The position numbers were made by a program, and so were the translations under genes. Of a stretch of 64,000 nt of DNA, positions 2,016-58,945 are shown one piece after another (position 1 is the stretch's first letter; every line of letters starts with the position of its first letter). The notes below the pieces were generated by a model. That model made no database searches. It had not been told where the DNA came from and saw nothing but the letters and a program-made list of their open reading frames with translations. This DNA is from Diprion similis (lineage: Eukaryota > Arthropoda > Insecta > Hymenoptera > Diprionidae), in the NCBI RefSeq assembly GCF_021155765.1, contig NC_060115.1, positions 5,188,493 to 5,252,492 on the forward strand. The letters are read 5' to 3'.

Positions 2016-2158
2016 GGTGTTTACTTGAGTGTCGAAAATTGAAAGTTTCTGACATTGAGAAAAAATGTTCACTTTTTGTATATACTGATAATTTATCGAA
2101 ACAGTTTTGGAAATCCTTCGGAGACGCTCTCGAGCTGAAAACAAGAAAAATGCTGAAT

Positions 2159-2164
2159 AATAAA
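2159..2164 (+). other. Polyadenylation signal of Elp4
   Basis: AATAAA about 145 nt after the Elp4 stop codon, the first canonical signal downstream, giving a short 3' UTR. Confidence 0.6.
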
Positions 2165-2770
2165 CTATGAATAATACGTCTAAGACTGTGTGGAGGTTTT
2201 ACAGCAAAAACTCTATGATATGAAAAAATTTTCCACTCGTCAGCTAACGTAATTGTCTACGTACAGGGAATGTCAACTTGTTCAGAAATACTCTGCTTCT
2301 GAATAATTATAAAGAACCTGAAGAAAATCAAATTCCGTACAAATGTTCTTTACAACTGTGCATTTTTGTTTTCCCGTTAGAAAAGCACATAACTATGTGC
2401 TGGAGAATAAATGACAAGGTTGAACTTTCAATTAGTTGTGGCTAAAACAAGAATCATTTTGCAATTTTAGAATTGTTTGTAAGGTTGGATTTGTCTGATG
2501 TGAACACGACAAAGATATATTTCGGTAAATATTCTTTCTCCGGTTGAATTTGAACTACAATTTGGAGATGCAAACCTTAGGCTTACAAAACATGACACCA
2601 GTAAAACCGATACTGATTGCTTACTTCTATGTGATTGTGAGCTTAGGGTCATGAGGATCAATTTGACAAGCGCTGTAATTAATTCATGATATGCTGAGAT
2701 GAAAGAATTTTACAGAAGTAATCGGCTGAGCAAAGTCTAAACTCACTATGACCAACGGATCGGAAGTGAT
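2165..2770. other. Spacer between Elp4 and the satellite
   Basis: AT-rich sequence with no convincing exon, RNA gene or repeat. It separates the Elp4 3' end from the first recognisable satellite monomer. Confidence 0.5.
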
Positions 2771-2784
2771 ATCTTACGGAATTG

Positions 2785-3180
2785 GAGATGCTTCGTAAAT
2801 CTTCATATTATTGAAATCAAGAACGGAACAATTTCGTCGTATTTTCAAAGCTGGTGGTCCTACTCTGTTTCGGGTGCCGATTTTGCGATCTTGTAAATGC
2901 TGCGTACAATTCTTTGAACCAGTAATCTCAAGTAATTTTGCAAGAAAATTGATTAGCCGCAGTCCCAATACGCTGCGAGCAACGGATCGGAAGTTACAGC
3001 CAAAAAACCGCAGATTTTCAGCGCTATTTATCTGCTGTTGGTCCGACGCTTTTTTAATGTGTTTTTCGAATTTCTGGGGTTCCAATTAGCCAAGTAACGG
3101 TCATACTAATCAATTTGGAGACCGAAGATTTTCGGCTCCAAAAATCGCAAAAAAAGTAAGGCAAACCCCTTTGGATTTGT
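2785..3180. repeat. Left-edge diverged satellite monomer(s)
   Basis: The sequence aligns with the 304-bp unit (CGCAGTCCCAATACGCTGCG, TTACAGCC, AATTTTGC) but carries many substitutions. It shares variants with the right-edge copies that the core lacks: GGATCGGAAGTTACAGCC in place of the core's CCTGTAAAGTTACAGCC, GGGGTTCCAATTAGCCAAG in place of GGGCGTCGAATTAGTCTAG, and an A-rich stretch extended by about 10 bp (CGCAAAAAAAGTAAGGC). This is the pattern expected of old monomers stranded outside the zone of homogenisation. Confidence 0.85.
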
Positions 3181-6100
3181 GACGAAAATTTTGACGATTC
3201 CGAAATGTGCTGCAATGAATTCTTTCAGGCACTATTCCGACGTAATTTTGCAGGGGGAATCGATTGATCGCAGTCCCAATACGCTGCGAGCAACACCTGT
3301 AAAGTTACAGCCGAAAAACTCATGATTTTCGTCGTCATTTCTCTGCTGCTGGTCCTACGCTATTTTTGATGTGTTTTCTGAGTTCCTGGGCGTCGAATTA
3401 GTCTAGAAAACGTCATACGAATCGATTCCCAGACAAAAGATTTTTCGGCCAAAAAAAATCCAAGGCTAACCCCTTTGCATTTTTGGTGAAAATTTCGACG
3501 ACTTTGAAAAGTGCTGCAATTAATTCTGTAGGGCACTATTCCGACGTAATTTTGCGAGAGAAATCGATTAAACGCAGTCCCAATACGCTGCGAGCAACAC
3601 CTGTAAAGTTACAGCCGAAAAACTCATGATTTTCGTCGTCATTTCTCTGCTGCTGGTCCTACGCTATTTTTGATGTGTTTTCTGAGTTCCTGGGCGTCGA
3701 ATTAGTCTAGAAAACGTCATACGAATCGATTCCCTGACAAAAGATTTTTCGGCCAAAAAAAATCCAAGGCTAACCCCTTTGCATTTTTGGTGAAAATTTC
3801 GACGACTTTGAAAAGTGCTGCAATTAATTCTGTAGGGCACTATTCCGACGTAATTTTGCGAGAGAAATCGATTAAACGCAGTCCCAATACGCTGCGAGCA
3901 ACACCTGTAAAGTTACAGCCGAAAAACTCATGATTTTCGTCGTCATTTCTCTGCTGCTGGTCCTACGCTATTTTTGATGTGTTTTCTGAGTTCCTGGGCG
4001 TCGAATTAGTCTAGAAAACGTCATACGAATCGATTCCCAGACAAAAGATTTTTCGGCCAAAAAAAAATCCAAGGCTAACGCCTTTGCATTTTTGGTGAAA
4101 ATTTCGACGACTTTGAAAAGTGCTGCAATTAATTCTGTAGGGCACTATTCCGACGTAATTTTGCGAGAGAAATCGATTAAACGCAGTCCCAATACGCTGC
4201 GAGCAACACCTGTGAAGTTACAGCCGAAAAACTCATGATTTTCGTCGTCATTTCTCTGCTGCTGGTCCTACGCTATTTTTGATGTGTTTTCTGAGTTCCT
4301 GGGCGTCGAATTAGTCTAGAAAACGTCATACGAATCGATTCCCAGACAAAAGATTTTTCGGCCAAAAAAAATCCAAGGCTAACCCCTTTGCATTTTTGGT
4401 GAAAATTTCGAAGACTTTGAAAAGTGCTGCAATTAATTCTGTAGGGCACTATTCCGACGTAATTTTGCGAGAGAAATCGATTAAACGCAGTCCCAATACG
4501 CTGCGAGCAACACCTGTAAAGTTACAGCCGAAAAACTCATGATTTTCGTCGTCATTTCTCTGCTGCTGGTCCTACGCTATTTTTGATGTGTTTTCTGAGT
4601 TCCTGGGCGTCGAATTAGTCTAGAAAACGTCATACGAATCGATTCCCAGACAAAAGATTTTTCGGCCAAAAAAAAATCCAAGGCTAACCCCTTTGCATTT
4701 TTGGTGAAAATTTCGACGACTTTGAAAAGTGCTGCAATTAATTCTGTAGGGCACTATTCCGACGTAATTTTGCGAGAGAAATCGATTAAACGCAGTCCCA
4801 ATACGCTGCGAGCAACACCTGTAAAGTTACAGCCGAAAAACTCATGATTTTCGTCGTCATTTCTCTGCTGCTGGTCCTACGCTATTTTTGATGTGTTTTC
4901 TGAGTTCCTGGGCGTCGAATTAGTCTAGAAAACGTCATACGAATCGATTCCCAGACAAAAGATTTTTCGGCCAAAAAAAATCCAAGGCTAACCCCTTTGC
5001 ATTTTTGGTGAAAATTTCGACGACTTTGAAAAGTGCTGCAATTAATTCTGTAGGGCACTATTCCGACGTAATTTTGCGAGAGAAATCGATTAAACGCAGT
5101 CCCAATACGCTGCGAGCAACACCTGTAAAGTTACAGCCGAAAAACTCATGATTTTCGTCGTCATTTCTCTGCTGCTGGTCCTACGCTATTTTTGATGTGT
5201 TTTCTAAGTTCCTGGGCGTCGAATTAGTCTAGGAAACGTCATACGAATCGATTCCCAGACAAAAGATTTTTCGGCCAAAAAAAAATCCAAGGCTAACCCC
5301 TTTGCATTTTTGGTGAAAATTTCGACGACTTTGAAAAGTGCTGCAATTAATTCTGTAGGGCACTATTCCGACGTAATTTTGCGAGAGAAATCGATTAAAC
5401 GCAGTCCCAATACGCTGCGAGCAACACCTGTAAAGTTACAGCCGAAAAACTCATGATTTTCGTCGTCATTTCTCTGCTGCTGGTCCTACGCTATTTTTGA
5501 TGTGTTTTCTGAGTTCCTGGGCGTCGAATTAGTCTAGAAAACGTCATACGAATCGATTCCCAGACAAAAGATTTTTCGGCCAAAAAAAATCCAAGGCTAA
5601 CCCCTTTGCATTTTTGGTGAAAATTTCGACGACTTTGAAAAGTGCTGCAATTAATTCTGTAGGGCACTATTCCGACGTAATTTTGCGAGAGAAATCGATT
5701 AAACGCAGTCCCAATACGCTGCGAGCAACACCTGTAAAGTTACAGCCGAAAAACTCATGATTTTCGTCGTCATTTCTCTGCTGCTGGTCCTACGCTATTT
5801 TTGATGTGTTTTCTGAGTTCCTGGGCGTCGAATTAGTCTAGAAAACGTCATACGAATCGATTCCCAGACAAAAGATTTTTCGGCCAAAAAAAAATCCAAG
5901 GCTAACCCCTTTGCATTTTTGGTGGAAATTTCGACGACTTTGAAAAGTGCTGCAATTAATTCTGTAGGGCACTATTCCGACGTAATTTTGCGAGAGAAAT
6001 CGATTAAACGCAGTCCCAATACGCTGCGAGCAACACCTGTAAAGTTACAGCCGAAAAACTCATGATTTTCGTCGTCATTTCTCTGCTGCTGGTCCTACGC

Positions 6101-9100
6101 TATTTTTGATGTGTTTTCTGAGTTCCTGGGCGTCGAATTAGTCTAGAAAACGTCATACGAATCGATTCCCAGACAAAAGATTTTTCGGCCAAAAAAAAAT
6201 CCAAGGCTAACCCCTTTGCATTTTTGGTGAAAATTTCGACGACTTTGAAAAGTGCTGCAATTAATTCTGTAGGGCACTATTCCGACGTAATTTTGCGAGA
6301 GAAATCGATTAAACGCAGTCCCAATACGCTGCGAGCAACACCTGTAAAGTTACAGCCGAAAAACTCATGATTTTCGTCGTCATTTCTCTGCTGCTGGTCC
6401 TACGCTATTTTTGATGTGTTTTCTGAGTTCCTGGGCGTCGAATTAGTCTAGAAAACGTCATACGAATCGATTCCCAGACAAAAGATTTTTCGGCCAAAAA
6501 AAATCCAAGGCTAACCCCTTTGCATTTTTGGTGAAAATTTCGACGACTTTGAAAAGTGCTGCAATTAATTCTGTAGGGCACTGTTCCGACGTAATTTTGC
6601 GAGAGAAATCGATTAAACGCAGTCCCAATACGCTGCGAGCAACACCTGTAAAGTTACAGCCGAAAAACTCATGATTTTCGTCGTCATTTCTCTGCTGCTG
6701 GTCCTACGCTATTTTTGATGTGTTTTCTGAGTTCCTGGGCGTCGAATTAGTCTAGAAAACGTCATACGAATCGATTCCCAGACAAAAGATTTTTCGGCCA
6801 AAAAAAATCCAAGGCTAACCCCTTTGCATTTTTGGTGAAAATTTCGACGACTTTGAAAAGTGCTGCAATTAATTCTGTAGGGCACTATTCCGACGTAATT
6901 TTGCGAGAGAAATCGATTAAACGCAGTCCCAATACGCTGCGAGCAACACCTGTAAAGTTACAGCCGAAAAACTCATGATTTTCGTCGTCATTTCTCTGCT
7001 GCTGGTCCTACGCTATTTTTGATGTGTTTTCTGAGTTCCTGGGCGTCGAATTAGTCTAGAAAACGTCATACGAATCGATTCCCAGACAAAAGATTTTTCG
7101 GCCAAAAAAAATCCAAGGCTAACCCCTTTGCATTTTTGGTGAAAATTTCGACGACTTTGAAAAGTGCTGCAATTAATTCTGTAGGGCACTATTCCGACGT
7201 AATTTTGCGAGAGAAATCGATTAAACGCAGTCCCAATACGCTGCGAGCAACACCTGTAAAGTTACAGCCGAAAAACTCATGATTTTCGTCGTCATTTCTC
7301 TGCTGCTGGTCCTACGCTATTTTTGATGTGTTTTCTGAGTTCCTGGGCGTCGAATTAGTCTAGAAAACGTCATACGAATCGATTCCCAGACAAAAGATTT
7401 TTCGGCCAAAAAAAATCCAAGGCTAACCCCTTTGCATTTTTGGTGAAAATTTCGACGACTTTGAAAAGTGCTGCAATTAATTCTGTAGGGCACTATTCCG
7501 ACGTAATTTTGCGAGAGAAATCGATCAAACGCAGTCCCAATACGCTGCGAGCAACACCTGTAAAGTTACAGCCGAAAAACTCATGATTTTCGTCGTCATT
7601 TCTCTGCTGCTGGTCCTACGCTATTTTTGATGTGTTTTCTGAGTTCCTGGGCGTCGAATTAGTCTAGAAAACGTCATACGAATCGATTCCCAGACAAAAG
7701 ATTTTTCGGCCAAAAAAAATCCAAGGCTAACCCCTTTGCATTTTTGGTGAAAATTTCGACGACTTTGAAAAGTGCTGCAATTAATTCTGTAGGGCACTAT
7801 TCCGACGTAATTTTGCGAGAGAAATCGATTAAACGCAGTCCCAATACGCTGCGAGCAACACCTGTAAAGTTACAGCCGAAAAACTCATGATTTTCGTCGT
7901 CATTTCTCTGCTGCTGGTCCTACGCTATTTTTGATGTGTTTTCTGAGTTCCTGGGCGTCGAATTAGTCTAGAAAACGTCATACGAATCGATTCCCAGACA
8001 AAAGATTTTTCGGCCAAAAAAAATCCAAGGCTAACCCCTTTGCATTTTTGGTGAAAATTTCGACGACTTTGAAAAGTGCTGCAATTAATTCTGTAGGGCA
8101 CTGTTCCGACGTAATTTTGCGAGAGAAATCGATTAAACGCAGTCCCAATACGCTGCGAGCAACACCTGTAAAGTTACAGCCGTAAAACTAATGATTTTCG
8201 TCGTCATTTCTCTGCTGCTGGTCCTACGCTATTTTTGATGTGTTTTCTGAGTTCCTGGGCGTCGAATTAGTCTAGAAAACGTTATACGAATCGATTCCCA
8301 GACAAAAGATTTTTCGGCCAAAAAAAATCCAAGGCTAACCCCTTTGCATTTTTGGTGAAAATTTCGACGACTTTGAAAAGTGCTGCAATTAATTCTGTAG
8401 GGCACTATTCCGACGTAATTTTGCGAGAGAAATCGATTAAACGCAGTCCCAATACGCTGCGAGCAACACCTGTAAAGTTACAGCCGTAAAACTAATGATT
8501 TTCGTCGTCATTTCTCTGCTGCTGGTCCTACGCTATTTTTGATGTGTTTTCTGAGTTCCTGGGCGTCGAATTAGTCTAGAAAACGTCATACGAATCGATT
8601 CCCAGACAAAAGATTTTTCGGCCAAAAAAAATCCAAGGCTAACCCCTTTGCATTTTTGGTGAAAATTTCGACGACTTTGAAAAGTGCTGCAATTAATTCT
8701 GTAGGGCACTATTCCGACGTAATTTTGCGAGAGAAATCGATTAAACGCAGTCCCAATACGCTGCGAGCAACACCTGTAAAGTTACAGCCGAAAAACTCAT
8801 GATTTTCGTCGTCATTTCTCTGCTGCTGGTCCTACGCTATTTTTGATGTGTTTTCTGAGTCCCTGGGCGTCGAATTAGTCTAGAAAACGTCATACGAATC
8901 GATTCCCAGACAAAAGATTTTTCGGCCAAAAAAAATCCAAGGCTAACCCCTTTGCATTTTTGGTGAAAATTTCGACGACTTTGAAAAGTGCTGCAATTAA
9001 TTCTGTAGGGCACTATTCCGACGTAATTTTGCGAGAGAAATCGATTAAACGCAGTCCCAATACGCTGCGAGCAACACCTGTAAAGTTACAGCCGAAAAAC

Positions 9101-12100
9101 TCATGATTTTCGTCGTCATTTCTCTGCTGCTGGTCCTACGCTATTTTTGATGTGTTTTCTGAGTTCCTGGGCGTCGAATTAGTCTAGAAAACGTCATACG
9201 AATCGATTCCCAGACAAAAGATTTTTCGGCCAAAAAAAAATCCAAGGCTAACCCCTTTGCATTTTTGGTGAAAATTTCGACGACTTTGAAAAGTGCTGCA
9301 ATTAATTCTGTAGGGCACTATTCCGACGTAATTTTGCGAGAGAAATCGATTAAACGCAGTCCCAATACGCTGCGAGCAACACCTGTAAAGTTACAGCCGA
9401 AAAACTCATGATTTTCGTCGTCATTTCTCTGCTGCTGGTCCTACGCTATTTTTGATGTGTTTTCTGAGTTCCTGGGCGTCGAATTAGTCTAGAAAACGTC
9501 ATACGAATCGATTCCCAGACAAAAGATTGTTCGGCCAAAAAAAATCCAAGGCTAACCCCTTTGCATTTTTGGTGAAAATTTCGACGACTTTGAAAAGTGC
9601 TGCAATTAATTCTGTAGGGCACTATTCCGACGTAATTTTGCGAGAGAAATCGATTAAACGCAGTCCCAATACGCTGCGAGCAACACCTGTAAAGTTACAG
9701 CCGAAAAACTCATGATTTTCGTCGTCATTTCTCTGCTGCTGGTCCTACGCTATTTTTGATGTGTTTTCTGAGTTCCTGGGCGTCGAATTAGTCTAGAAAA
9801 CGTCATACGAATCGATTCCCAGACAAAAGATTTTTCGGCCAAAAAAAATCCAAGGCTAACCCCTTTGCATTTTTGGTGAAAATTTCGACGACTTTGAAAA
9901 GTGCTGCAATTAATTCTGTAGGGCACTATTCCGACGTAATTTTGCGAGAGAAATCGATTAAACGCAGTCCCAATACGCTGCGAGCAACACCTGTAAAGTT
10001 ACAGCCGAAAAACTCATGATTTTCGTCGTCATTTCTCTGCTGCTGGTCCTACGCTATTTTTGATGTGTTTTCTGAGTTCCTGGGCGTCGAATTAGTCTAG
10101 AAAACGTCATACGAATCGATTCCCAGACAAAAGATTGTTCGGCCAAAAAAAATCCAAGGCTAACCCCTTTGCATTTTTGGTGAAAATTTCGACGACTTTG
10201 AAAAGTGCTGCAATTAATTCTGTAGGGCACTATTCCGACGTAATTTTGCGAGAGAAATCGATTAAACGCAGTCCCAATACGCTGCGAGCAACACCTGTAA
10301 AGTTACAGCCGAAAAACTCATGATTTTCGTCGTCATTTCTCTGCTGCTGGTCCTACGCTATTTTTGATGTGTTTTCTGAGTTCCTGGGCGTCGAATTAGT
10401 CTAGAAAACGTCATACGAATCGATTCCCAGACAAAAGATTTTTCGGCCAAAAAAAATCCAAGGCTAACCCCTTTGCATTTTTGGTGAAAATTTCGACGAC
10501 TTTGAAAAGTGCTGCAATTAATTCTGTAGGGCACTATTCCGACGTAATTTTGCGAGAGAAATCGATCAAACGCAGTCCCAATACGCTGCGAGCAACACCT
10601 GTAAAGTTACAGCCGAAAAACTCATGATTTTCGTCGTCATTTCTCTGCTGCTGGTCCTACGCTATTTTTGATGTGTTTTCTGAGTTCCTGGGCGTCGAAT
10701 TAGTCTAGAAAACGTCATACGAATCGATTCCCAGACAAAAGATTTTTCGGCCAAAAAAAATCCAAGGCTAACCCCTTTGCATTTTTGGTGAAAATTTCGA
10801 CGACTTTGAAAAGTGCTGCAATTAATTCTGTAGGGCACTATTCCGACGTAATTTTGCGAGAGAAATCGATTAAACGCAGTCCCAATACGCTGCGAGCAAC
10901 ACCTGTAAAGTTACAGCCGAAAAACTCATGATTTTCGTCGTCATTTCTCTGCTGCTGGTCCTACGCTATTTTTGATGTGTTTTCTGAGTTCCTGGGCGTC
11001 GAATTAGTCTAGAAAACGTCATACGAATCGATTCCCAGACAAAAGATTTTTCGGCCAAAAAAAATCCAAGGCTAACCCCTTTGCATTTTTGGTGAAAATT
11101 TCGACGACTTTGAAAAGTGCTGCAATTAATTCTGTAGGGCACTATTCCGACGTAATTTTGCGAGAGAAATCGATTGAACGCAGTCCCAATACGCTGCGAG
11201 CAACACCTGTAAAGTTACAGCCGAAAAACTCATGATTTTCGTCGTCATTTCTCTGCTGCTGGTCCTACGCTATTTTTGATGTGTTTTCTGAGTTCCTGGG
11301 CGTCGAATTAGTCTAGAAAACGTCATACGAATCGATTCCGGGACAAAAGATTTTTCGGCCAAAAAAAATCCAAGGCTAACCCCTTTGCATTTTTGGTGAA
11401 AATTTCGACGACTTTGAAAAGTGCTGCAATTAATTCTGTAGGGCACTGTTCCGACGTAATTTTGCGAGAGAAATCGATTAAACGCAGTCCCAATACGCTG
11501 CGAGCAACACCTGTAAAGTTACAGCCGAAAAACTCATGATTTTCGTCGTCATTTCTCTGCTGCTGGTCCTACGCTATTTTTGATGTGTTTTTTGAGTTCC
11601 TGGGCGTCGAATTAGTCTGGAAAACGTCATACGAATCGATTCCCAGACAAAAGATTTTTCGGCCAAAAAAAATCCAAGGCTAACCCCTTTGCATTTTTGG
11701 TGAAAATTTCGACGACTTTGAAAAGTGCTGCAATTAATTCTGTAGGGCACTATTCCGACGTAATTTTGCGAGAGAAATCGATTAAACGCAGTCCCAATAC
11801 GCTGCGAGCAACACCTGTAAAGTTACAGCCGAAAAACTCATGATTTTCGTCGTCATTTCTCTGCTGCTGGTCCTACGCTATTTTTGATGTGTTTTTTGAG
11901 TTCCTGGGCGTCGAATTAGTCTAGAAAACGTCATACGAATCGATTCCGGGACAAAAGATTTTTCGGCCAAAAAAAATCCAAGGCTAACCCCTTTGCATTT
12001 TTGGTGGAAATTTCGACGACTTTGAAAAGTGCTGCAATTAATTCTGTAGGGCACTATTCCGACGTAATTTTGCGAGAGAAATCGATTAAACGCAGTCCCA

Positions 12101-15100
12101 ATACGCTGCGAGCAACACCTGTAAAGTTACAGCCGAAAAACTCATGATTTTCGTCGTCATTTCTCTGCTGCTGGTCCTACGCTATTTTTGATGTGTTTTC
12201 TGAGTTCCTGGGCGTCGAATTAGTCTAGAAAACGTCATACGAATCGATTCCCAGACAAAAGATTTTTCGGCCAAAAAAAATCCAAGGCTAACCCCTTTGC
12301 ATTTTTGGTGAAAATTTCGACGACTTTGAAAAGTGCTGCAATTAATTCTGTAGGGCACTGTTCCGACGTAATTTTGCGAGAGAAATCGATTAAACGCAGT
12401 CCCAATACGCTGCGAGCAACACCTGTAAAGTTACAGCCGAAAAACTCATGATTTTCGTCGTCATTTCTCTGCTGCTGGTCCTACGCTATTTTTGATGTGT
12501 TTTCTGAGTTCCTGGGCGTCGAATTAGTCTGGAAAACGTCATACGAATCGATTCCCAGACAAAAGATTTTTCGGCCAAAAAAAATCCAAGGCTAACCCCT
12601 TTGCATTTTTGGTGAAAATTTCGACGACTTTGAAAAGTGCTGCAATTAATTCTGTAGGGCACTATTCCGACGTAATTTTGCGAGAGAAATCGATTAAACG
12701 CAGTCCCAATACGCTGCGAGCAACACCTGTAAAGTTACAGCCGAAAAACTCATGATTTTCGTCGTCATTTCTCTGCTGCTGGTCCTACGCTATTTTTGAT
12801 GTGTTTTCTGAGTTCCTGGGCGTCGAATTAGTCTAGAAAACGTCATACGAATCGATTCCCAGACAAAAGATTTTTCGGCCAAAAAAAATCCAAGGCTAAC
12901 CCCTTTGCATTTTTGGTGAAAATTTCGACGACTTTGAAAAGTGCTGCAATTAATTCTGTAGGGCACTATTCCGACGTAATTTTGCGAGAGAAATCGATTA
13001 AACGCAGTCCCAATACGCTGCGAGCAACACCTGTAAAGTTACAGCCGAAAAACTCATGATTTTCGTCGTCATTTCTCTGCTGCTGGTCCTACGCTATTTT
13101 TGATGTGTTTTCTGAGTTCCTGGGCGTCGAATTAGTCTAGAAAACGTCATACGAATCGATTCCCAGACAAAAGATTTTTCGGCCAAAAAAAATCCAAGGC
13201 TAACCCCTTTGCATTTTTGGTGAAAATTTCGACGACTTTGAAAAGTGCTGCAATTAATTCTGTAGGGCACTGTTCCGACGTAATTTTGCGAGAGAAATCG
13301 ATTAAACGCAGTCCCAATACGCTGCGAGCAACACCTGTAAAGTTACAGCCGAAAAACTCATGATTTTCGTCGTCATTTCTCTGCTGCTGGTCCTACGCTA
13401 TTTTTGATGTGTTTTCTGAGTTCCTGGGCGTCGAATTAGTCTAGAAAACGTCATACGAATCGATTCCCAGACAAAAGATTTTTCGGCCAAAAAAAATCCA
13501 AGGCTAACCCCTTTGCATTTTTGGTGACAATTTCGACGACTTTGAAAAGTGCTGCAATTAATTCTGTAGGGCACTATTCCGACGTAATTTTGCGAGAGAA
13601 ATCGATCAAACGCAGTCCCAATACGCTGCGAGCAACACCTGTAAAGTTACAGCCGAAAAACTCATGATTTTCGTCGTCATTTCTCTGCTGCTGGTCCTAC
13701 GCTATTTTTGATGTGTTTTCTGAGTTCTTGGGCGTCGAATTAGTCTAGAAAACGTCATACGAATCGATTCCCAGACAAAAGATTTTTCGGCCAAAAAAAA
13801 TCCAAGGCTAACCCCTTTGCATTTTTGGTGAAAATTTCGACGACTTTGAAAAGTGCTGCAATTAATTCTGTAGGGCACTGTTCCGACGTAATTTTGCGAG
13901 AGAAATCGATTAAACGCAGTCCCAATACGCTGCGAGCAACACCTGTAAAGTTACAGCCGAAAAACTCATGATTTTCGTCGTCATTTCTCTGCTGCTGGTC
14001 CTACGCTATTTTTGATGTGTTTTCTGAGTTCCTGGGCGTCGAATTAGTCTGGAAAACGTCATACGAATCGATTCCCAGACAAAAGATTTTTCGGCCAAAA
14101 AAAATCCAAGGCTAACCCCTTTGCATTTTTGGTGAAAATTTCGACGACTTTGAAAAGTGCTGCAATTAATTCTGTAGGGCACTATTCCGACGTAATTTTG
14201 CGAGAGAAATCGATTAAACGCAGTCCCAATACGCTGCGAGCAACACCTGTAAAGTTACAGCCGAAAAACTCATGATTTTCGTCGTCATTTCTCTGCTGCT
14301 GGTCCTACGCTATTTTTGATGTGTTTTCTGAGTTCCTGGGCGTCGAATTAGTCTAGAAAACGTCATACGAATCGATTCCCAGACAAAAGATTGTTCGGCC
14401 AAAAAAAATCCAAGGCTAACCCCTTTGCATTTTTGGTGAAAATTTCGACGACTTTGAAAAGTGCTGCAATTAATTCTGTAGGGCACTATTCCGACGTAAT
14501 TTTGCGAGAGAAATCGATTAAACGCAGTCCCAATACGCTGCGAGCAACACCTGTAAAGTTACAGCCGAAAAACTCATGATTTTCGTCGTCATTTCTCTGC
14601 TGCTGGTCCTACGCTATTTTTGATGTGTTTTCTGAGTTCCTGGGCGTCGAATTAGTCTAGAAAACGTCATACGAATCGATTCCCAGACAAAAGATTTTTC
14701 GGCCAAAAAAAATCCAAGGCTAACCCCTTTGCATTTTTGGTGAAAATTTCGACGACTTTGAAAAGTGCTGCAATTAATTCTGTAGGGCACTATTCCGACG
14801 TAATTTTGCGAGAGAAATCGATTAAACGCAGTCCCAATACGCTGCGAGCAACACCTGTAAAGTTACAGCCGAAAAACTCATGATTTTCGTCGTCATTTCT
14901 CTGCTGCTGGTCCTACGCTATTTTTGATGTGTTTTCTGAGTTCCTGGGCGTCGAATTAGTCTAGAAAACGTCATACGAATCGATTCCCAGACAAAAGATT
15001 TTTCGGCCAAAAAAAATCCAAGGCTAACCCCTTTGCATTTTTGGTGAAAATTTCGACGACTTTGAAAAGTGCTGCAATTAATTCTGTAGGGCACTATTCC

Positions 15101-18100
15101 GACGTAATTTTGCGAGAGAAATCGATCAAACGCAGTCCCAATACGCTGCGAGCAACACCTGTAAAGTTACAGCCGAAAAACTCATGATTTTCGTCGTCAT
15201 TTCTCTGCTGCTGGTCCTACGCTATTTTTGATGTGTTTTCTGAGTTCCTGGGCGTCGAATTAGTCTAGAAAACGTCATACGAATCGATTCCCAGACAAAA
15301 GATTTTTCGGCCAAAAAAAATCCAAGGCTAACCCCTTTGCATTTTTGGTGAAAATTTCGACGACTTTGAAAAGTGCTGCAATTAATTCTGTAGGGCACTA
15401 TTCCGACGTAATTTTGCGAGAGAAATCGATTAAACGCAGTCCCAATACGCTGCGAGCAACACCTGTAAAGTTACAGCCGAAAAACTCATGATTTTCGTCG
15501 TCATTTCTCTGCTGCTGGTCCTACGCTATTTTTGATGTGTTTTCTGAGTTCCTGGGCGTCGAATTAGTCTAGAAAACGTCATACGAATCGATTCCCAGAC
15601 AAAAGATTTTTCGGCCAAAAAAAATCCAAGGCTAACCCCTTTGCATTTTTGGTGAAAATTTCGACGACTTTGAAAAGTGCTGCAATTAATTCTGTAGGGC
15701 ACTATTCCGACGTAATTTTGCGAGAGAAATCGATTGAACGCAGTCCCAATACGCTGCGAGCAACACCTGTAAAGTTACAGCCGAAAAACTCATGATTTTC
15801 GTCGTCATTTCTCTGCTGCTGGTCCTACGCTATTTTTGATGTGTTTTCTGAGTTCCTGGGCGTCGAATTAGTCTAGAAAACGTCATACGAATCGATTCCG
15901 GGACAAAAGATTTTTCGGCCAAAAAAAATCCAAGGCTAACCCCTTTGCATTTTTGGTGAAAATTTCGACGACTTTGAAAAGTGCTGCAATTAATTCTGTA
16001 GGGCACTGTCTCGACGTAATTTTGCGAAAGAAATCGATTAAACGCAGTCCCAATACGCTGCGAGCAACACCTGTAAAGTTACAGCCGAAAAACTCATGAT
16101 TTTCGTCGTCATTTCTCTGCTGCTGGTCCTACGCTATTTTTGATGTGTTTTTTGAGTTCCTGGGCGTCGAATTAGTCTGGAAAACGTCATACGAATCGAT
16201 TCCCAGACAAAAGATTTTTCGGCCAAAAAAAATCCAAGGCTAACCCCTTTGCATTTTTGGTGAAAATTTCGACGACTTTGAAAAGTGCTGCAATTAATTC
16301 TGTAGGGCACTATTCCGACGTAATTTTGCGAGAGAAATCGATTAAACGCAGTCCCAATACGCTGCGAGCAACACCTGTAAAGTTACAGCCGAAAAACTCA
16401 TGATTTTCGTCGTCATTTCTCTGCTGCTGGTCCTACGCTATTTTTGATGTGTTTTTTGAGTTCCTGGGCGTCGAATTAGTCTAGAAAACGTCATACGAAT
16501 CGATTCCGGGACAAAAGATTTTTCGGCCAAAAAAAATCCAAGGCTAACCCCTTTGCATTTTTGGTGGAAATTTCGACGACTTTGAAAAGTGCTGCAATTA
16601 ATTCTGTAGGGCACTATTCCGACGTAATTTTGCGAGAGAAATCGATTAAACGCAGTCCCAATACGCTGCGAGCAACACCTGTAAAGTTACAGCCGAAAAA
16701 CTCATGATTTTCGTCGTCATTTCTCTGCTGCTGGTCCTACGCTATTTTTGATGTGTTTTCTGAGTTCCTGGGCGTCGAATTAGTCTAGAAAACGTCATAC
16801 GAATCGATTCCCAGACAAAAGATTTTTCGGCCAAAAAAAATCCAAGGCTAACCCCTTTGCATTTTTGGTGAAAATTTCGACGACTTTGAAAAGTGCTGCA
16901 ATTAATTCTGTAGGGCACTGTTCCGACGTAATTTTGCGAGAGAAATCGATTAAACGCAGTCCCAATACGCTGCGAGCAACACCTGTAAAGTTACAGCCGA
17001 AAAACTCATGATTTTCGTCGTCATTTCTCTGCTGCTGGTCCTACGCTATTTTTGATGTGTTTTCTGAGTTCCTGGGCGTCGAATTAGTCTAGGAAACGTC
17101 ATACGAATCGATTCCCAGACAAAAGATTTTTCGGCCAAAAAAAATCCAAGGCTAACCCCTTTGCATTTTTGGTGAAAATTTCGACGACTTTGAAAAGTGC
17201 TGCAATTAATTCTGTAGGGCACTATTCCGACGTAATTTTGCGAGAGAAATCGATTAAACGCAGTCCCAATACGCTGCGAGCAACACCTGTAAAGTTACAG
17301 CCGAAAAACTCATGATTTTTGTCGTCATTTCTCTGCTGCTGGTCCTACGCTATTTTTGATGTGTTTTCTGAGTTCCTGGGCGTCGAATTAGTCTAGAAAA
17401 CGTCATACGAATCGATTCCCAGACAAAAGATTTTTCGGCCAAAAAAAATCCAAGGCTAACCCCTTTGCATTTTTGGTGAAAATTTCGACGACTTTGAAAA
17501 GTGCTGCAATTATTTCTGTAGGGCACTATTCCGACGTAGTTTTGCGAGAGAAATCGATTAAACGCAGTCCCAATACGCTGCGAGCAACACCTGTAAAGTT
17601 ACAGCCGAAAAACTCATGATTTTCGTCGTCATTTCTCTGCTGCTGGTCCTACGCTATTTTTGATGTGTTTTCTGAGTTCCTGGGCGTCGAATTAGTCTAG
17701 AAAACGTCATACGAATCGATTCCCAGACAAAAGATTTTTCGGCCAAAAAAAATCCAAGGCTAACCCCTTTGCATTTTTGGTGAAAATTTCGACGACTTTG
17801 AAAAGTGCTGCAATTAATTCTGTAGGGCACTATTCCGACGTAATTTTGCGAGAGAAATCGATTAAACGCAGTCCCAATACGCTGCAAGCAACACCTGTAA
17901 AGTTACAGCCGAAAAACTCATGATTTTCGTCGTCATTTCTCTGCTGCTGGTCCTACGCTATTTTTGATGTGTTTTCTGAGTTCCTGGGCGTCGAATTAGT
18001 CTAGAAAACGTCATACGAATCGATTCCCAGACAAAAGATTTTTCGGCCAAAAAAAATCCAAGGCTAACCCCTTTGCATTTTTGGTGAAAATTTCGACGAC

Positions 18101-21100
18101 TTTGAAAAGTGCTGCAATTAATTCTGTAGGGCACTATTCCGACGTAATTTTGCGAGAGAAATCGATTGAACGCAGTCCCAATACGCTGCGAGCAACACCT
18201 GTAAAGTTACAGCCGAAAAACTCATGATTTTCGTCGTCATTTCTCTGCTGCTGGTCCTACGCTATTTTTGATGTGTTTTCTGAGTTCCTGGGCGTCGAAT
18301 TAGTCTAGAAAACGTCATACGAATCGATTCCCAGACAAAAGATTTTTCGGCCAAAAAAAATCCAAGGCTAACCCCTTTGCATTTTTGGTGAAAATTTCGA
18401 CGACTTTGAAAAGTGCTGCAATTAATTCTGTAGGGCACTATTCCGACGTAATTTTGCGAGAGAAATCGATTAAACGCAGTCCCAATACGCTGCGAGCAAC
18501 ACCTGTAAAGTTACAGCCGAAAAACTCATGATTTTCGTCGTCATTTCTCTGCTGCTGGTCCTACGCTATTTTTGATGTGTTTTCTGAGTTCCTGGGCGTC
18601 GAATTAGTCTAGAAAACGTCATACGAATCGATTCCCAGACAAAAGATTTTTCGGCCAAAAAAAATCCAAGGCTAACCCCTTTGCATTTTTGGTGAAAATT
18701 TCGACGACTTTGAAAAGTGCTGCAATTAATTCTGTAGGGCACTATTCCGACGTAATTTTGCGAGAGAAATCGATTAAACGCAGTCCCAATACGCTGCGAG
18801 CAACACCTGTAAAGTTACAGCCGAAAAACTCATGATTTTCGTCGTCATTTCTCTGCTGCTGGTCCTACGCTATTTTTGATGTGTTTTCTGAGTTCCTGGG
18901 CGTCGAATTAGTCTAGAAAACGTCATACGAATCGATTCCCAGACAAAAGATTTTTCGGCCAAAAAAAATCCAAGGCTAACCCCTTTGCATTTTTGGTGAA
19001 AATTTCGACGACTTTGAAAAGTGCTGCAATTAATTCTGTAGGGCACTATTAGGACGTAATTTTGCGAGAGAAATCGATTAAACGCAGTCCCAATACGCTG
19101 CGAGCAACACCTGTAAAGTTACAGCCGAAAAACTCATGATTTTCGTCGTCATTTCTCTGCTGCTGGTCCTACGCTATTTTTGATGTGTTTTCTGAGTTCC
19201 TGGGCGTCGAATTAGTCTAGAAAACGTCATACGAATCGATTCCCAGACAAAAGATTTTTCGGCCAAAAAAAATCCAAGGCTAACCCCTTTGCATTTTTGG
19301 TGAAAATTTCGACGACTTTGAAAAGTGCTGCAATTAATTCTGTAGGGCACTATTCCGACGTAATTTTGCGAGAGAAATCGATTGAACGCAGTCCCAATAC
19401 GCTGCGAGCAACACCTGTAAAGTTACAGCCGAAAAACTCATGATTTTCGTCGTCATTTCTCTGCTGCTGGTCCTACGCTATTTTTGATGTGTTTTCTGAG
19501 TTCCTGGGCGTCGAATTAGTCTAGAAAACGTCATACGAATCGATTCCCAGACAAAAGATTTTTCGGCCAAAAAAAATCCAAGGCTAACCCCTTTGCATTT
19601 TTGGTGAAAATTTCGACGACTTTGAAAAGTGCTGCAATTAATTCTGTAGGGCACTATTCCGACGTAATTTTGCGAGAGAAATCGATTAAACGCAGTCCCA
19701 ATACGCTGCGAGCAACACCTGTAAAGTTACAGCCGAAAAACTCATGATTTTCGTCGTCATTTCTCTGCTGCTGGTCCTACGTTATTTTTGATGTGTTTTC
19801 TGAGTTCCTGGGCGTCGAATTAGTCTAGAAAACGTCATCCGAATCGATTCCCAGACAAAAGATTTTTCGGCCAAAAAAAATCCAAGGCTAACCCCTTTGC
19901 ATTTTTGGTGAAAATTTCGACGACTTTGAAAAGTGCTGCAATCAATTCTGTAGGGCACTATTCCGACGTAATTTTGCGAGAGAAATCGATTGAACGCAGT
20001 CCCAATACGCTGCGAGCAACACCTGTAAAGTTACAGCCGAAAAACTCATGATTTTCGTCGTCATTTCTCTGCTGCTGGTCCTACGCTATTTTTGATGTGT
20101 TTTCTGAGTTCCTGGGCGTCGAATTAGTCTAGAAAACGTCATACGAATCGATTCCCAGACAAAAGATTTTTCGGCCAAAAAAAATCCAAGGCTAACCCCT
20201 TTGCATTTTTGGTGAAAATTTCGACGACTTTGAAAAGTGCTGCAATTAATTCTGTAGGGCACTATTCCGACGTAATTTTGCGAGAGAAATCGATTAAACG
20301 CAGTCCCAATACGCTGCGAGCAACACCTGTAAAGTTACAGCCGAAAAACTCATGATTTTCGTCGTCATTTCTCTGCTGCTGGTCCTACGCTATTTTTGAT
20401 GTGTTTTCTGAGTTCCTGGGCATCGAATTAGTCTAGAAAACGTCATACGAATCGATTCCCAGACAAAAGATTTTTCGGCCAAAAAAAATCCAAGGCTAAC
20501 CCCTTTGCATTTTTGGTGAAAATTTCGACGACTTTGAAAAGTGCTGCAATTAATTCTGTAGGGCACTATTCCGACGTAATTTTGCGAGAGAAATCGATTG
20601 AACGCAGTCCCAATACGCTGCGAGCAACACCTGTAAAGTTACAGCCGAAAAACTCATGATTTTCGTCGTCATTTCTCTGCTGCTGGTCCTACGCTATTTT
20701 TGATGTGTTTTCTGAGTTCCTGGGCGTCGAATTAGTCTAGAAAACGTCATACGAATCGATTCCCAGACAAAAGATTTTTCGGCCAAAAAAAATCCAAGGC
20801 TAACCCCTTTGCATTTTTGGTGAAAATTTCGACGACTTTGAAAAGTGCTGCAATTAATTCTGTAGGGCACTATTCCGACGTAATTTTGCGAGAGAAATCG
20901 ATTAAACGCAGTCCCAATACGCTGCAAGCAACACCTGTAAAGTTACAGCCGAAAAACTCATGATTTTCGTCGTCATTTCTCTGCTGCTGGTCCTACGCTA
21001 TTTTTGATGTGTTTTCTGAGTTCCTGGGCGTCGAATTAGTCTAGAAAACGTCATACGAATCGATTCCCAGACAAAAGATTTTTCGGCCAAAAAAAATCCA

Positions 21101-24100
21101 AGGCTAACCCCTTTGCATTTTTGGTGAAAATTTCGACGACTTTGAAAAGTGCTGCAATTAATTCTGTAGGGCACTATTCCGACGTAATTTTGCGAGAGAA
21201 ATCGATTGAACGCAGTCCCAATACGCTGCGAGCAACACCTGTAAAGTTACAGCCGAAAAACTCATGATTTTCGTCGTCATTTCTCTGCTGCTGGTCCTAC
21301 GCTATTTTTGATGTGTTTTCTGAGTTCCTGGGCGTCGAATTAGTCTAGAAAACGTCATACGAATCGATTCCCAGACAAAAGATTTTTCGGCCAAAAAAAA
21401 TCCAAGGCTAACCCCTTTGCATTTTTGGTGAAAATTTCGACGACTTTGAAAAGTGCTGCAATTAATTCTGTAGGGCACTATTCCGACGTAATTTTGCGAG
21501 AGAAATCGATTAAACGCAGTCCCAATACGCTGCGAGCAACACCTGTAAAGTTACAGCCGAAAAACTCATGATTTTCGTCGTCATTTCTCTGCTGCTGGTC
21601 CTACGCTATTTTTGATGTGTTTTCTGAGTTCCTGGGCGTCGAATTAGTCTAGAAAACGTCATACGAATCGATTCCCAGACAAAAGATTTTTCGGCCAAAA
21701 AAAATCCAAGGCTAACCCCTTTGCATTTTTGGTGAAAATTTCGACGACTTTGAAAAGTGCTGCAATTAATTCTGTAGGGCACTATTCCGACGTAATTTTG
21801 CGAGAGAAATCGATTAAACGCAGTCCCAATACGCTGCGAGCAACACCTGTAAAGTTACAGCCGAAAAACTCATGATTTTCGTCGTCATTTCTCTGCTGCT
21901 GGTCCTACGCTATTTTTGATGTGTTTTCTGAGTTCCTGGGCGTCGAATTAGTCTAGAAAACGTCATACGAATCGATTCCCAGACAAAAGATTTTTCGGCC
22001 AAAAAAAATCCAAGGCTAACCCCTTTGCATTTTTGGTGAAAATTTCGACGACTTTGAAAAGTGCTGCAATTAATTCTGTAGGGCACTATTAGGACGTAAT
22101 TTTGCGAGAGAAATCGATTAAACGCAGTCCCAATACGCTGCGAGCAACACCTGTAAAGTTACAGCCGAAAAACTCATGATTTTCGTCGTCATTTCTCTGC
22201 TGCTGGTCCTACGCTATTTTTGATGTGTTTTCTGAGTTCCTGGGCGTCGAATTAGTCTAGAAAACGTCATACGAATCGATTCCCAGACAAAAGATTTTTC
22301 GGCCAAAAAAAATCCAAGGCTAACCCCTTTGCATTTTTGGTGAAAATTTCGACGACTTTGAAAAGTGCTGCAATTAATTCTGTAGGGCACTATTCCGACG
22401 TAATTTTGCGAGAGAAATCGATTGAACGCAGTCCCAATACGCTGCGAGCAACACCTGTAAAGTTACAGCCGAAAAACTCATGATTTTCGTCGTCATTTCT
22501 CTGCTGCTGGTCCTACGCTATTTTTGATGTGTTTTCTGAGTTCCTGGGCGTCGAATTAGTCTAGAAAACGTCATACGAATCGATTCCCAGACAAAAGATT
22601 TTTCGGCCAAAAAAAATCCAAGGCTAACCCCTTTGCATTTTTGGTGAAAATTTCGACGACTTTGAAAAGTGCTGCAATTAATTCTGTAGGGCACTATTCC
22701 GACGTAATTTTGCGAGAGAAATCGATTAAACGCAGTCCCAATACGCTGCGAGCAACACCTGTAAAGTTACAGCCGAAAAACTCATGATTTTCGTCGTCAT
22801 TTCTCTGCTGCTGGTCCTACGCTATTTTTGATGTGTTTTCTGAGTTCCTGGGCGTCGAATTAGTCTAGAAAACGTCATACGAATCGATTCCGGGACAAAA
22901 GATTTTTCGGCCAAAAAAAATCCAAGGCTAACCCCTTTGCATTTTTGGTGAAAATTTCGACGACTTTGAAAAGTGCTGCAATTAATTCTGTAGGGCACTA
23001 TTCCGACGTAATTTTGCGAGAGAAATCGATTAAACGCAGTCCCAATACGCTGCGAGCAACACCTGTAAAGTTACAGCCGAAAAACTCATGATTTTCGTCG
23101 TCATTTCTCTGCTGCTGGTCCTACGTTATTTTTGATGTGTTTTCTGAGTTCCTGGGCGTCGAATTAGTCTAGAAAACGTCATCCGAATCGATTCCCAGAC
23201 AAAAGATTTTTCGGCCAAAAAAAATCCAAGGCTAACCCCTTTGCATTTTTGGTGAAAATTTCGACGACTTTGAAAAGTGCTGCAATCAATTCTGTAGGGC
23301 ACTATTCCGACGTAATTTTGCGAGAGAAATCGATTGAACGCAGTCCCAATACGCTGCGAGCAACACCTGTAAAGTTACAGCCGAAAAACTCATGATTTTC
23401 GTCGTCATTTCTCTGCTGCTGGTCCTACGCTATTTTTGATGTGTTTTCTGAGTTCCTGGGCGTCGAATTAGTCTAGAAAACGTCATACGAATCGATTCCC
23501 AGACAAAAGATTTTTCGGCCAAAAAAAATCCAAGGCTAACCCCTTTGCATTTTTGGTGAAAATTTCGACGACTTTGAAAAGTGCTGCAATTAATTCTGTA
23601 GGGCACTATTCCGACGTAATTTTGCGAGAGAAATCGATTAAACGCAGTCCCAATACGCTGCGAGCAACACCTGTAAAGTTACAGCCGAAAAACTCATGAT
23701 TTTCGTCGTCATTTCTCTGCTGCTGGTCCTACGCTATTTTTGATGTGTTTTCTGAGTTCCTGGGCATCGAATTAGTCTAGAAAACGTCATACGAATCGAT
23801 TCCCAGACAAAAGATTTTTCGGCCAAAAAAAATCCAAGGCTAACCCCTTTGCATTTTTGGTGAAAATTTCGACGACTTTGAAAAGTGCTGCAATTAATTC
23901 TGTAGGGCACTATTCCGACGTAATTTTGCGAGAGAAATCGATTGAACGCAGTCCCAATACGCTGCGAGCAACACCTGTAAAGTTACAGCCGAAAAACTCA
24001 TGATTTTCGTCGTCATTTCTCTGCTGCTGGTCCTACGCTATTTTTGATGTGTTTTCTGAGTTCCTGGGCGTCGAATTAGTCTAGAAAACGTCATACGAAT

Positions 24101-25490
24101 CGATTCCCAGACAAAAGATTTTTCGGCCAAAAAAAATCCAAGGCTAACCCCTTTGCATTTTTGGTGAAAATTTCGACGACTTTGAAAAGTGCTGCAATTA
24201 ATTCTGTAGGGCACTATTCCGACGTAATTTTGCGAGAGAAATCGATTCAACGCAGTCCCAATACGCTGCGAGCACCACCTGTAAAGTTACAGCCGAAAAA
24301 CTCATGATTTTCGTCGTCATTTCTCTGCTGCTGGTCCTACGCTATTTTTGATGTGTTTTCTGAGTTCCTGGGCGTCGAATTAGTCTAGAAAACGTCATAC
24401 GAATCGATTCCCAGACAAAAGATTTTTCGGCCAAAAAAAATCCAAGGCTAACCCCTTTGCATTTTTGGTGAAAATTTCGACGACTTTGAAAAGTGCTGCA
24501 ATTAATTCTGTAGGGCACTATTCCGACGTAATTTTGCGAGAGAAATCGATTAAACGCAGTCCCAATACGCTGCGAGCAACACCTGTAAAGTTACAGCCGA
24601 AAAACTCATGATTTTCGTCGTCATTTCTCTGCTGCTGGTCCTACGCTATTTTTGATGTGTTTTCTGAGTTCCTGGGCGTCGAATTAGTCTAGAAAACGTC
24701 ATACGAATCGATTCCGGGACAAAAGATTTTTCGGCCAAAAAAAATCCAAGGCTAACCCCTTTGCATTTTTGGTGAAAATTTCGACGACTTTGAAAAGTGC
24801 TGCAATTAATTCTGTAGGGCACTATTCCGACGTAATTTTGCGAGAGAAATCGATTAAACGCAGTCCCAATACGCTGCGAGCAACACCTGTAAAGTTACAG
24901 CCGAAAAACTCATGATTTTCGTCGTCATTTCTCTGCTGCTGGTCCTACGTTATTTTTGATGTGTTTTCTGAGTTCCTGGGCGTCGAATTAGTCTAGAAAA
25001 CGTCATCCGAATCGATTCCCAGACAAAAGATTTTTCGGCCAAAAAAAATCCAAGGCTAACCCCTTTGCATTTTTGGTGAAAATTTCGACGACTTTGAAAA
25101 GTGCTGCAATCAATTCTGTAGGGCACTATTCCGACGTAATTTTGCGAGAGAAATCGATTGAACGCAGTCCCAATACGCTGCGAGCAACACCTGTAAAGTT
25201 ACTGCCGAAAAACTCATGATTTTCGTCGTCATTTCTCTGCTGCTGGTCCTACGCTATTTTTGATGTGTTTTCTGAGTTCCTGGGCGTCGAATTAGTCTAG
25301 AAAACGTCATACGAATCGATTCCCAGACAAAAGATTTTTCGGCCAAAAAAAATCCAAGGCTAACCCCTTTGCATTTTTGGTGAAAATTTCGACGACTTTG
25401 AAAAGTGCTGCAATTAATTCTGTAGCGCACTATTCCGACGTAATTTTGCGAGAGAAATCGATCAAACGCAGTCCCAATACGCTGCGAGCA
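3181..25490. repeat. Core 304-bp satellite array, about 73 copies
   Basis: A head-to-tail tandem array of a 304-bp monomer. The period is exact: diagnostic variants recur at 608, 1520, 1824, 3040, 3344, 4256 and 4560 bp, all multiples of 304. About six copies are 305 bp because a poly-A run has nine rather than eight A. Copies differ by only a few substitutions. Each holds a perfect dyad (CTGTAA-AG-TTACAG), an A-tract after TTTTCGGCC, and CGCAGTCCCAATACGCTGCG. Since 304 is not a multiple of 3 and every frame has stops, the array is not a coding repeat. I found no CENP-B-box match. Monomer length and homogeneity fit satellite DNA, but a centromeric or other role cannot be read from sequence. 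Confidence 0.98.
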
Positions 25491-26060
25491 ACGGATCAAA
25501 AGTTACAGCCAAAAAACTGCAGATTTTCATCGTCATTTCTCTGATGTTGGTCCCACGCTTTTCTCAATGTGTTTTTTGAGTTCCTGGGGTCCCAATTAGC
25601 CAAGAAATGGTCTTACAAATCAATTCGGAGACCGGAAATTTTCGGCTCCGAAAATCGCAAAAAAAGTAAGCAGGGCTAACCCCTTTCGATTTTTGGCGAA
25701 AATTTCGACCACTTTGAAAAGTGCTGCAATTATTCCTATAGGGCACCATTCCGACGTAATTTTGCGAGGGAAATTGATTGAGCGCAGTCTCAATACGCTG
25801 CGAGCAACGGATCGAGAGTTACAGCCAAAAAACGAAAGACGTATTTTTTCAATTTTTCTGCTGCTGGTCTTTGCGTCGTCATTTCTCTGCTGTTGCTTCT
25901 TTGCTTTTGTTCCTGTATTTACTGAGTTCCAGGGTGTACAATTAGTTTAGAAAGGGCCCTATAAATCGATTCTGAGACGACAATTTTTTGGCACTCAAAT
26001 TGACGAAAAAAGCAAGGCTCACCCCTGTGGATGTCTGGAGAATCTTTTGACGATTCCGAA
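25491..26060. repeat. Right-edge diverged satellite monomers
   Basis: About two further units after the core ends abruptly near 25490, where CGAGCAACACCTG becomes CGAGCAACGGATC. They carry the same edge-type variants as the left flank: TTACAGCCAAAAAAC, GGGGTCCCAATTAGCCAAG, and the longer CGAAAATCGCAAAAAAAGTAAG. The last part (25950-26060, with TTTTTTGGCACTCAAATTGAC and GCAAGGCTCACCCC) is more decayed. Confidence 0.85.
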
Positions 26061-26734
26061 AACGCATCAAGACTCATAGCTTATAAACTGAGGATGCTTC
26101 AGTATTCCATCAGATGCCCGACCAATACTATTTTTTATGGTTTCACAACACAATTCACGGTCTTACCATTGGATGCATTCACAAATTCACTTCAGATGAC
26201 AAAGTTCAATTTCCTAATATCGCAATTCAGGCAGTGCTCACCCTCTCGAGCATTGGATCGGAATGTATAGTCAATTCGATAAACTCATGCACAAGGTTCG
26301 CAAAAGGCTGGAGGATAAGAATCACATATTTATAGGTTTCAAGTCTTAGCTGTTTTATTCACATGACTTTATTCTGATACAAGCATTTGTATGCCAGCTT
26401 GCAGTAATTTAACTAGATACCTTGTTGTATACTAGTAATGTCAAAGGGTATGAAAGAGTATGATCGAATATTACATAATCAGTCTGATTATTTAAATGGG
26501 AAAGCGGAGTGCAATGTATGTTATCTTTAGCATAATGATAAAAATATCATATCAGATAGTCAGTTTCGTAGTTAGTAAGTATAGTTTTAGTGTCGACTTG
26601 CTTACAAGCGCAACACATTTTTATAGGATACGATATATTACGTATGACATTGTATTGTCATTATTTCATGTAACCTGATCTAAAATGAATAAATAACATG
26701 ATCTTTATTGATTTAATTCTTACTTTCTTAACTG
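26061..26734. other. Unique spacer between satellite relics
   Basis: AT-rich, with short chance open frames only. I see no coding, RNA or mobile-element signal. Confidence 0.4.
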
Positions 26735-26930
26735 TTGATCCCACTACGCCTTTTTTGCAATCTTCGAGGACCAATTACTCATTAGTCCACGAAGAGTCGT
26801 AATAATAGATCCCGAGACACAAAATTGTTAGCTTCGAAATCCATAAAAAAAAGTAAGACTAATCCCCTTGGGTTTCTGCTGAAAATTGAACGGATTTAAA
26901 AAAATGACGCATTCAGTGTCTACACGCACT
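26735..26930. repeat. Decayed satellite relic
   Basis: Weak but colinear similarity to the edge-type monomer: GATCCCACTACGCCTTTTTT, GACCAATTACTCATTAGTCC, GATCCCGAGACACAAAATTG, CATAAAAAAAAGTAAGACTA, then CCCCTTGGGTTTCTGCTGAA. The order of matching blocks is that of the monomer. Confidence 0.6.
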
Positions 26931-27204: not shown

Positions 27205-27640
27205 TCGGAAAAAAAAACAAAAAAAGAAATCTCACTCTAACCTCTTTCAATTTCATTATCCAAGTTTAGTGGTTATTTTGGTAAAATGCTGCGATCAATC
27301 CACGGAAACTTTATATCAACGTGTTTTTGTGTGAGAAATTCAATATCCGCAGTCTTAACACGCTGCAATTTGAGAATTCCTAATCAATCAAGAAACATTC
27401 TTCCAACTCGATTCTAAGATGAATCGTCATTGACTCTCAAAAATTGGAACAAATCTCACGCAATCGCTATATGTTACTTCCCGTATCAATTATTGGCCGA
27501 TTCTCAAGAATGCTCAAATCATTTTCGTTCAACCATTCCTAATTCCTCAACCGAAACAGCTGGAAAAGAAAGACACGTCATATCTTTTTTCGCCCTGATT
27601 CCGAACTGCCATTTTTACCGTTTTTGTTGAGTTTTCTGTG
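27205..27640. repeat. Second decayed satellite relic
   Basis: Colinear weak matches to the edge monomer: AACAAAAAAAGAAATCTCAC, CTAACCTCTTTCAATTTCAT, AAATGCTGCGATCAATCCAC, GTGAGAAATTCAATATCCGC, AGTCTTAACACGCTGCAA, then CGTCATATCTTTTTTCGCCC and a GTTGAGTTTTCTG block. It covers about one and a half unit lengths. Confidence 0.6.
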
Positions 27641-58939: not shown

Positions 58940-58945
58940 TTTATT
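58940..58945 (-). other. Polyadenylation signal of MCT-C
   Basis: AATAAA on the minus strand about 120 nt beyond the stop at 59064. A second copy lies near 58663-58668. Confidence 0.55.

What the first reader, a model, noticed from the sequence alone, without database searches (positions are those of the whole stretch)
3181..25490. A 22-kb, almost perfectly homogenised 304-bp satellite array close to a housekeeping gene
About 73 head-to-tail copies begin roughly 0.8-1.2 kb from the 3' end of Elp4 and end about 2.7 kb from MCT-A. Large homogeneous arrays are usually in heterochromatin; here one lies between apparently intact genes. I cannot assign it to a described satellite family.
Basis: partly seen in the sequence, partly recalled or inferred. 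Interest (0 to 1): 0.75.

Follow-up and report, generated by a model that had tools for sequence, protein, structure and literature searches.

The report
Recently renewed satellite DNA between genes
About 73 nearly identical 304-base copies sit head to tail between two genes that face each other in what looks like an insect genome, with older decayed copies of the same repeat on both sides; it is a clear but ordinary case of satellite DNA renewed in the middle and decaying at the edges.

Summary
The array is real: Tandem Repeats Finder gives 2932-25833, period 304, 75.3 copies; 76 units, all direct. 73 core units average 99.5% identity to their consensus, and 16 of 73 match it exactly. It is an old satellite locus whose centre was recently renewed.

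Units sharing a variant haplotype lie close together (mean 10.7 units apart; shuffled 24.6; 0 of 5000 shuffles as low), with blocks repeated at shifts of 10, 11, 15 and 6 units: the footprint of local unequal exchange.

It lies between convergent genes, Elp4 (Pfam PAXNEB) and a gene whose MCT label I could not confirm. Low-copy euchromatic satellites near genes, with up to 84 units in one array, are reported in a beetle (PMC10218199, passages), though euchromatic arrays are mostly short (PMC12692304). New member of a known kind. No genome was held, so species, genome-wide copy number and a family name stay open, and an assembly error in copy number is not excluded.

The parts
2706..2891 (+). 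decayed satellite unit, left outer remnant
   Evidence: nhmmer with the unit profile, E 8.2e-7
2932..3241 (+). diverged edge unit m00, older subfamily (about 25-27% from the core)
3242..3268 (+). non-core start of unit m01; left junction at about 3268/3269
   Evidence: six differences clustered at unit positions 11-27, none after
3269..25466 (+). homogenised core: 73 units of 304 or 305 bp, with repeated blocks of units
25467..25492 (+). interval in which the right core-to-old junction lies (unit positions 28-53 of m74)
   Evidence: alignment
25493..25755 (+). old-type remainder of unit m74 (about 21-22% from the core)
25756..26062 (+). diverged edge unit m75, with an internal insertion
   Evidence: nhmmer E 1.1e-69; 27% from the core
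26082..26710 (.). AT-rich stretch (34% GC) without recognisable satellite, splitting the decayed units; possible insertion
   Evidence: absence of hits; GC; no convincing terminal repeats
26711..26930 (+). decayed satellite unit, right remnant
   Evidence: nhmmer E 1e-14
27325..27367 (+). last recognisable fragment of a decayed unit
   Evidence: nhmmer E 1.4e-4
865..2015 (+). 3' exons of Elp4 (PAXNEB), pointing towards the array
   Evidence: Pfam PF05625 in 865-1497 (E 2.2e-44) and 1612-1821 (E 1.5e-19); last exon and stop read by eye
   Evidence: open frames; no family match

Best explanation
This is a low-copy, gene-proximal satellite DNA locus. An older, heterogeneous array of 304-310-bp units occupied the space between two convergent genes. 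Its middle was replaced and expanded by one variant, which spread by repeated local out-of-register exchange between nearby units (unequal sister-chromatid crossover, conversion or break-induced replication), while the edges, where exchange is rare, kept older units and decayed. Shown here: the old edges, the homogeneous core, spatial clustering of shared variants and repeated blocks of units. Inferred: the exchange mechanism, that the site persists because the gap between two gene 3' ends tolerates it, and that the array has no dedicated host function.
For: Diverged and decayed units of one family on both sides, in the same orientation. Core 99.5% to consensus. Repeated blocks: m49-m54 equal m59-m64 (shift 10), m55-m58 equal m66-m69 (shift 11), m29-m30 equal m44-m45 with near-identical m27-m28 and m42-m43 (shift 15), m65-m66 equal m71-m72 (shift 6), and an extra base in every second unit from m03 to m09. 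Mean distance between units of the same non-consensus haplotype 10.7 against 24.6 when shuffled, 0 of 5000 as low; by single variants 17.2 against 24.7, 0 of 2000. No long frame (at most 82 codons in the repeated consensus), no RNA family, no tRNA gene. The review PMC12692304 states that homogenisation is less efficient at array ends (passage).
Against: The longest run of matching informative haplotypes, 4, is also the maximum seen among 2000 shuffles, so that one measure alone is not decisive. No genome, reads or sister species, so neither age nor absence of function is tested. One 26-base block is nearly unchanged in the core and two old units (P 0.008 for a window of 26, but 0.10 at 20, 0.26 at 30 and 0.28 at 40), a weak hint of constraint.
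Confidence: 0.8

Rival explanations
1. Outlying block of a major centromeric or pericentromeric satellite of this species: the core variant was delivered here from large arrays elsewhere, for example as an extrachromosomal circle, and the host locus is a side branch of a genome-wide family.
For: The core differs from all three old units at 17 sites where these agree, and the left and right old units m00 and m74 are closer to each other (15-16%) than to the core (21-27%). Both junctions fall in the same interval of the unit, positions 28-53, with a chance of 0.03 for two independent uniform junctions.
Against: The old units were themselves as different from each other (m74 and m75 27%), so a local unit could be the source. 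Clustering of variants shows that much of the turnover was local. No CENP-B-box match within 2 mismatches (motif recalled).
Confidence: 0.3
2. Assembly artefact: the copy number, or part of it, is wrong because identical blocks were duplicated or collapsed.
For: Identical multi-unit blocks exist, the longest exact repeat being 2,221 bp at an offset of 10 units; no reads were available.
Against: 33 haplotypes of units in a structured order and old units at both ends are not what a simple mis-join gives; reads longer than about 2.3 kb would meet distinguishing variants (inference).
Confidence: 0.1
3. The array is a functional element, for example a boundary or terminator between two convergent genes, with a protein binding the conserved 26-base block in each unit, which holds an imperfect dyad CGCAG...CTGCG.
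For: Position between two gene 3' ends; the dyad core is kept in m00, in m75 and in the remnant at 27348, and the block has 1 difference in 52 compared positions.
Against: The significance depends on the window length chosen; the left outer remnant does not keep the dyad (alignment); 2 of the 41 polymorphic core sites lie in the block.
Confidence: 0.06
4. The tandem units are the inside of a transposable element such as a Helitron or terminal-inverted-repeat element.
For: Reviews report satellite arrays inside Helitrons (PMC12692304, passage); an AT-rich stretch of about 630 bp interrupts the right edge.
Against: No convincing terminal inverted repeats around the edges (the longest inverted pairs involve gene sequence or are 70-89% matches); edges fade into decayed units instead of ending sharply.
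Confidence: 0.05

Closest known systems
Low- and moderate-copy euchromatic satellites of Tribolium castaneum (TCsat, Cast families; PMC10218199, passages)
   Same: Head-to-tail units of about one or two nucleosome lengths (300-340 bp is one preferred class), arrays of up to 84 units, genes within 5 kb for 35 of 41 satellites.
   Different: No sequence relation was tested; this organism is not identified; here the array is homogeneous to 99.5% with clear old edges.
Drosophila 1.688 satellite, euchromatic copies (PMC10048060, passage)
   Same: Satellite copies near genes outside heterochromatin.
   Different: Those euchromatic arrays are described as mostly up to six repeats; here about 73.
Alpha-satellite-type arrays with homogeneous core and older edges (PMC8122249, passages; layered structure recalled)
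   Same: New variant in the middle, older monomers outside, blocks of units repeated together.
   Different: 22 kb not megabases, between genes, no CENP-B box found, no evidence of centromere activity.

Membership tests
Satellite DNA (tandem non-coding repeat, concerted evolution) | Head-to-tail units longer than about 60 bp | tested here: met
   Period 304, 75.3 copies, all direct
Satellite DNA (tandem non-coding repeat, concerted evolution) | Non-coding | tested here: met
   At most 82 codons open in the repeated consensus; no Rfam or tRNA match; transcription not testable
Satellite DNA (tandem non-coding repeat, concerted evolution) | Homogenised units, less so at the ends | tested here: met
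   0.88% mean pairwise divergence in the core, 21-27% at the edge units
Major centromeric satellite | High genome-wide copy number at centromeres | not testable with these tools
   No genome held
Major centromeric satellite | CENP-B box (found in some, not required) | tested here: not met
   No match within 2 mismatches in the unit; motif recalled
Gene-proximal euchromatic satellite | Array within a few kb of genes | tested here: met
   About 1.25 kb from Elp4 coding sequence and 2.7 kb from the next open gene
Gene-proximal euchromatic satellite | Euchromatic chromatin state | not testable with these tools
   Only inferred from the gene-containing surroundings
Helitron or inverted-repeat element with internal tandem repeats | Defined element ends | tested here: not met
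   No convincing inverted ends, decayed edges; Helitron end motifs were not searched specifically

The most novel reading that the evidence does not exclude
The core entered as a satellite circle of a different subfamily that integrated into the old array by a single homologous crossover in the 26-base block, the longest stretch of identity shared with the left old unit, so that the left junction reads old-to-new and the right one new-to-old at the same place in the unit; local exchange then shaped it. This would be a base-resolved scar of circle-borne satellite spread into a gene gap.
Probability: 0.12. Interest if true: 0.45.

Novelty: new member of a known kind. Interest (0 to 1): 0.25.

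Why it matters
A compact satellite locus assembled from edge to edge, between genes, gives a readable record of how such arrays turn over: old units outside, new variant inside, blocks copied at shifts of 6 to 15 units. It would be a useful locus for measuring array turnover between individuals and sister species, but it does not change what is known about satellites.

Tried and rejected
Whole-genome count of the unit: no genome is held. Finding the unit in other collections: nothing by exact patterns in viral contigs or prokaryote genomes, nothing by blastn in plasmids or phages. Naming the satellite from papers: no paper with all of satellite DNA, 304 bp, monomer and Hymenoptera or 304-bp, satellite DNA, tandem and insect; sequence fragments found one paper, unrelated by its listing; searches on sawfly and hymenopteran satellites gave no match to this unit in the listings. 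I started from a recalled idea that the source is a sawfly; nothing confirmed it and I do not claim it. Internal dimer of 152 bp: not seen. Nucleosome-like periodicity of AA/TT/TA steps: power near 10.5 bp is low (0.11) with the peak at 11.7 bp, so no support. CENP-B box: absent. Conserved 26-base block: kept as a weak hint only, because the result depends on window length. Transporter identity of the right neighbour: not confirmed. Papers: PMC10048060, PMC8122249, PMC5844308, PMC10218199 and PMC12692304 were seen as passages only; all others as listings.

Full report
Tandem Repeats Finder reports one dominant array in the window, 2932-25833, period 304, 75.3 copies, 98% matches. An anchor of 26 bases, allowing 6 substitutions, finds 76 units, all on the + strand and none on the - strand; of 75 spacings 67 are 304, 6 are 305, one is 311 and one 316. 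Such an array is far beyond chance.

The array has layers. Units m01-m73 (3242-25439) form a core with on average 1.41 differences from the consensus; 16 of 73 are identical to it, there are 33 haplotypes and mean pairwise divergence is 0.88%. Outside lie m00 on the left and m74-m75 on the right, 21-27% from the core over positions 54 onwards. Farther out a profile search finds decayed units at 2706-2891, 26711-26930 and 27325-27367, with a further one below the inclusion threshold at 27129-27301. That search covered 1-3241 and 25440-64000 of the window; its other hits are the edge units themselves. About 630 bp of AT-rich sequence at 26082-26710 separates two of the right units.

The core records its own history. 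Units m49-m54 recur as m59-m64, m55-m58 as m66-m69, m65-m66 as m71-m72, and m27-m30 as m42-m45 with three added private changes; an extra base marks m03, m05, m07, m09, m10 and m20. Among 56 pairs of units with the same non-consensus haplotype the mean distance is 10.7 units, against 24.6 (s.d. 2.8) when the order is shuffled, and 0 of 5000 shuffles is as low; for single shared variants 17.2 against 24.7, 0 of 2000. A less sensitive measure, the longest run of matching informative haplotypes, is 4 against a mean of 1.4 and a maximum of 4 in 2000 shuffles. Independent mutation after one uniform amplification would not cluster variants; local out-of-register exchange does. This mechanism is inferred from the pattern.

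Both changes between core and non-core sequence fall within unit positions 28-53: m01 differs from the core only at positions 11-27 and m74 only from position 54 on, apart from one core-type variant at position 24. This stretch of 26 bases is the longest run identical between the core and the left old unit; the next is 24 bases. If junctions fell uniformly and independently, the chance of the same interval would be 0.03. One homologous insertion or an in-register expansion of one new unit would both give this. Over positions 54-269 m00 and m74 differ by 15%, and each from the core by 27% and 22%; 10 sites group m00 with m74, against 4 and 1 for the other groupings, and 17 sites set the core apart from all three old units. 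But m74 and its neighbour m75 differ by 27%, so the old array was heterogeneous and could have held the ancestor of the core.

Function. The unit has no long open frame, no RNA family at Rfam's thresholds, no tRNA gene, no CENP-B-box match within two mismatches and no 10.5-bp periodicity. The 26-base block is nearly unchanged between the core, m00 and m75, but the test gives P 0.008 at window 26 and 0.10, 0.26 and 0.28 at windows 20, 30 and 40. The dyad within it survives in the remnant at 27348 but not in the left outer remnant. I treat a binding site as possible and unproven. The most likely reading is a neutral array tolerated between the 3' ends of two genes.

Neighbours. Elp4 is confirmed by two PAXNEB matches. 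The gene on the right could not be confirmed as a monocarboxylate transporter; two of the open frames at 55-58 kb resemble MFS_1 below Pfam's cut-off. The genes and a peritrophin-type chitin-binding protein (CBM_14) suggest an arthropod; no call identifies the species.

Comparison. PMC10218199 (passages) describes 46 low-copy satellites of Tribolium castaneum whose longest arrays hold 5 to 84 repeats, mainly in euchromatin, with units favouring 140-180 or 300-340 bp, and genes within 5 kb for 35 of 41. PMC12692304 (passages) says that homogenisation is weaker at array ends and that euchromatic satellites occur mostly as short arrays; PMC10048060 (passages) says homogenisation is less efficient in shorter, dispersed arrays. 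With about 73 units this array is at the long and homogeneous end of that range, not outside it. I therefore call it a new member of a known kind.

Limits. No genome or reads were available. The longest exact internal repeat is 2,221 bp, so long reads should resolve the array, but that is an inference about an assembly I could not inspect.

Noticed in passing
37773-42674 (+): Open frame of 1633 codons, Thr/Ser-rich, with six copies of a 222-bp in-frame coding repeat (38726-40058); no Pfam family.
   Followed up: partly
43040-43966 (-): Mucin-like protein with chitin-binding CBM_14 domains separated by TTTEAA-type repeats (18-bp tandem repeat).
   Followed up: partly
55125-60713 (-): Several transporter-like open frames; two resemble MFS_1 below Pfam's cut-off (E 2.6e-6 and 0.0028).
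   Followed up: partly
63201-63524 (-): Weak match to a retrotransposon gag domain (E 0.0047, below cut-off) at the right end of the window.
   Followed up: no
26082-26710: AT-rich stretch of about 630 bp inside the decayed right edge of the satellite; possibly an inserted element.
   Followed up: partly
3242-25439: CpG observed/expected is 1.45 in the array and 1.15 in the rest of the window tested, so no sign of CpG loss in either.
   Followed up: no
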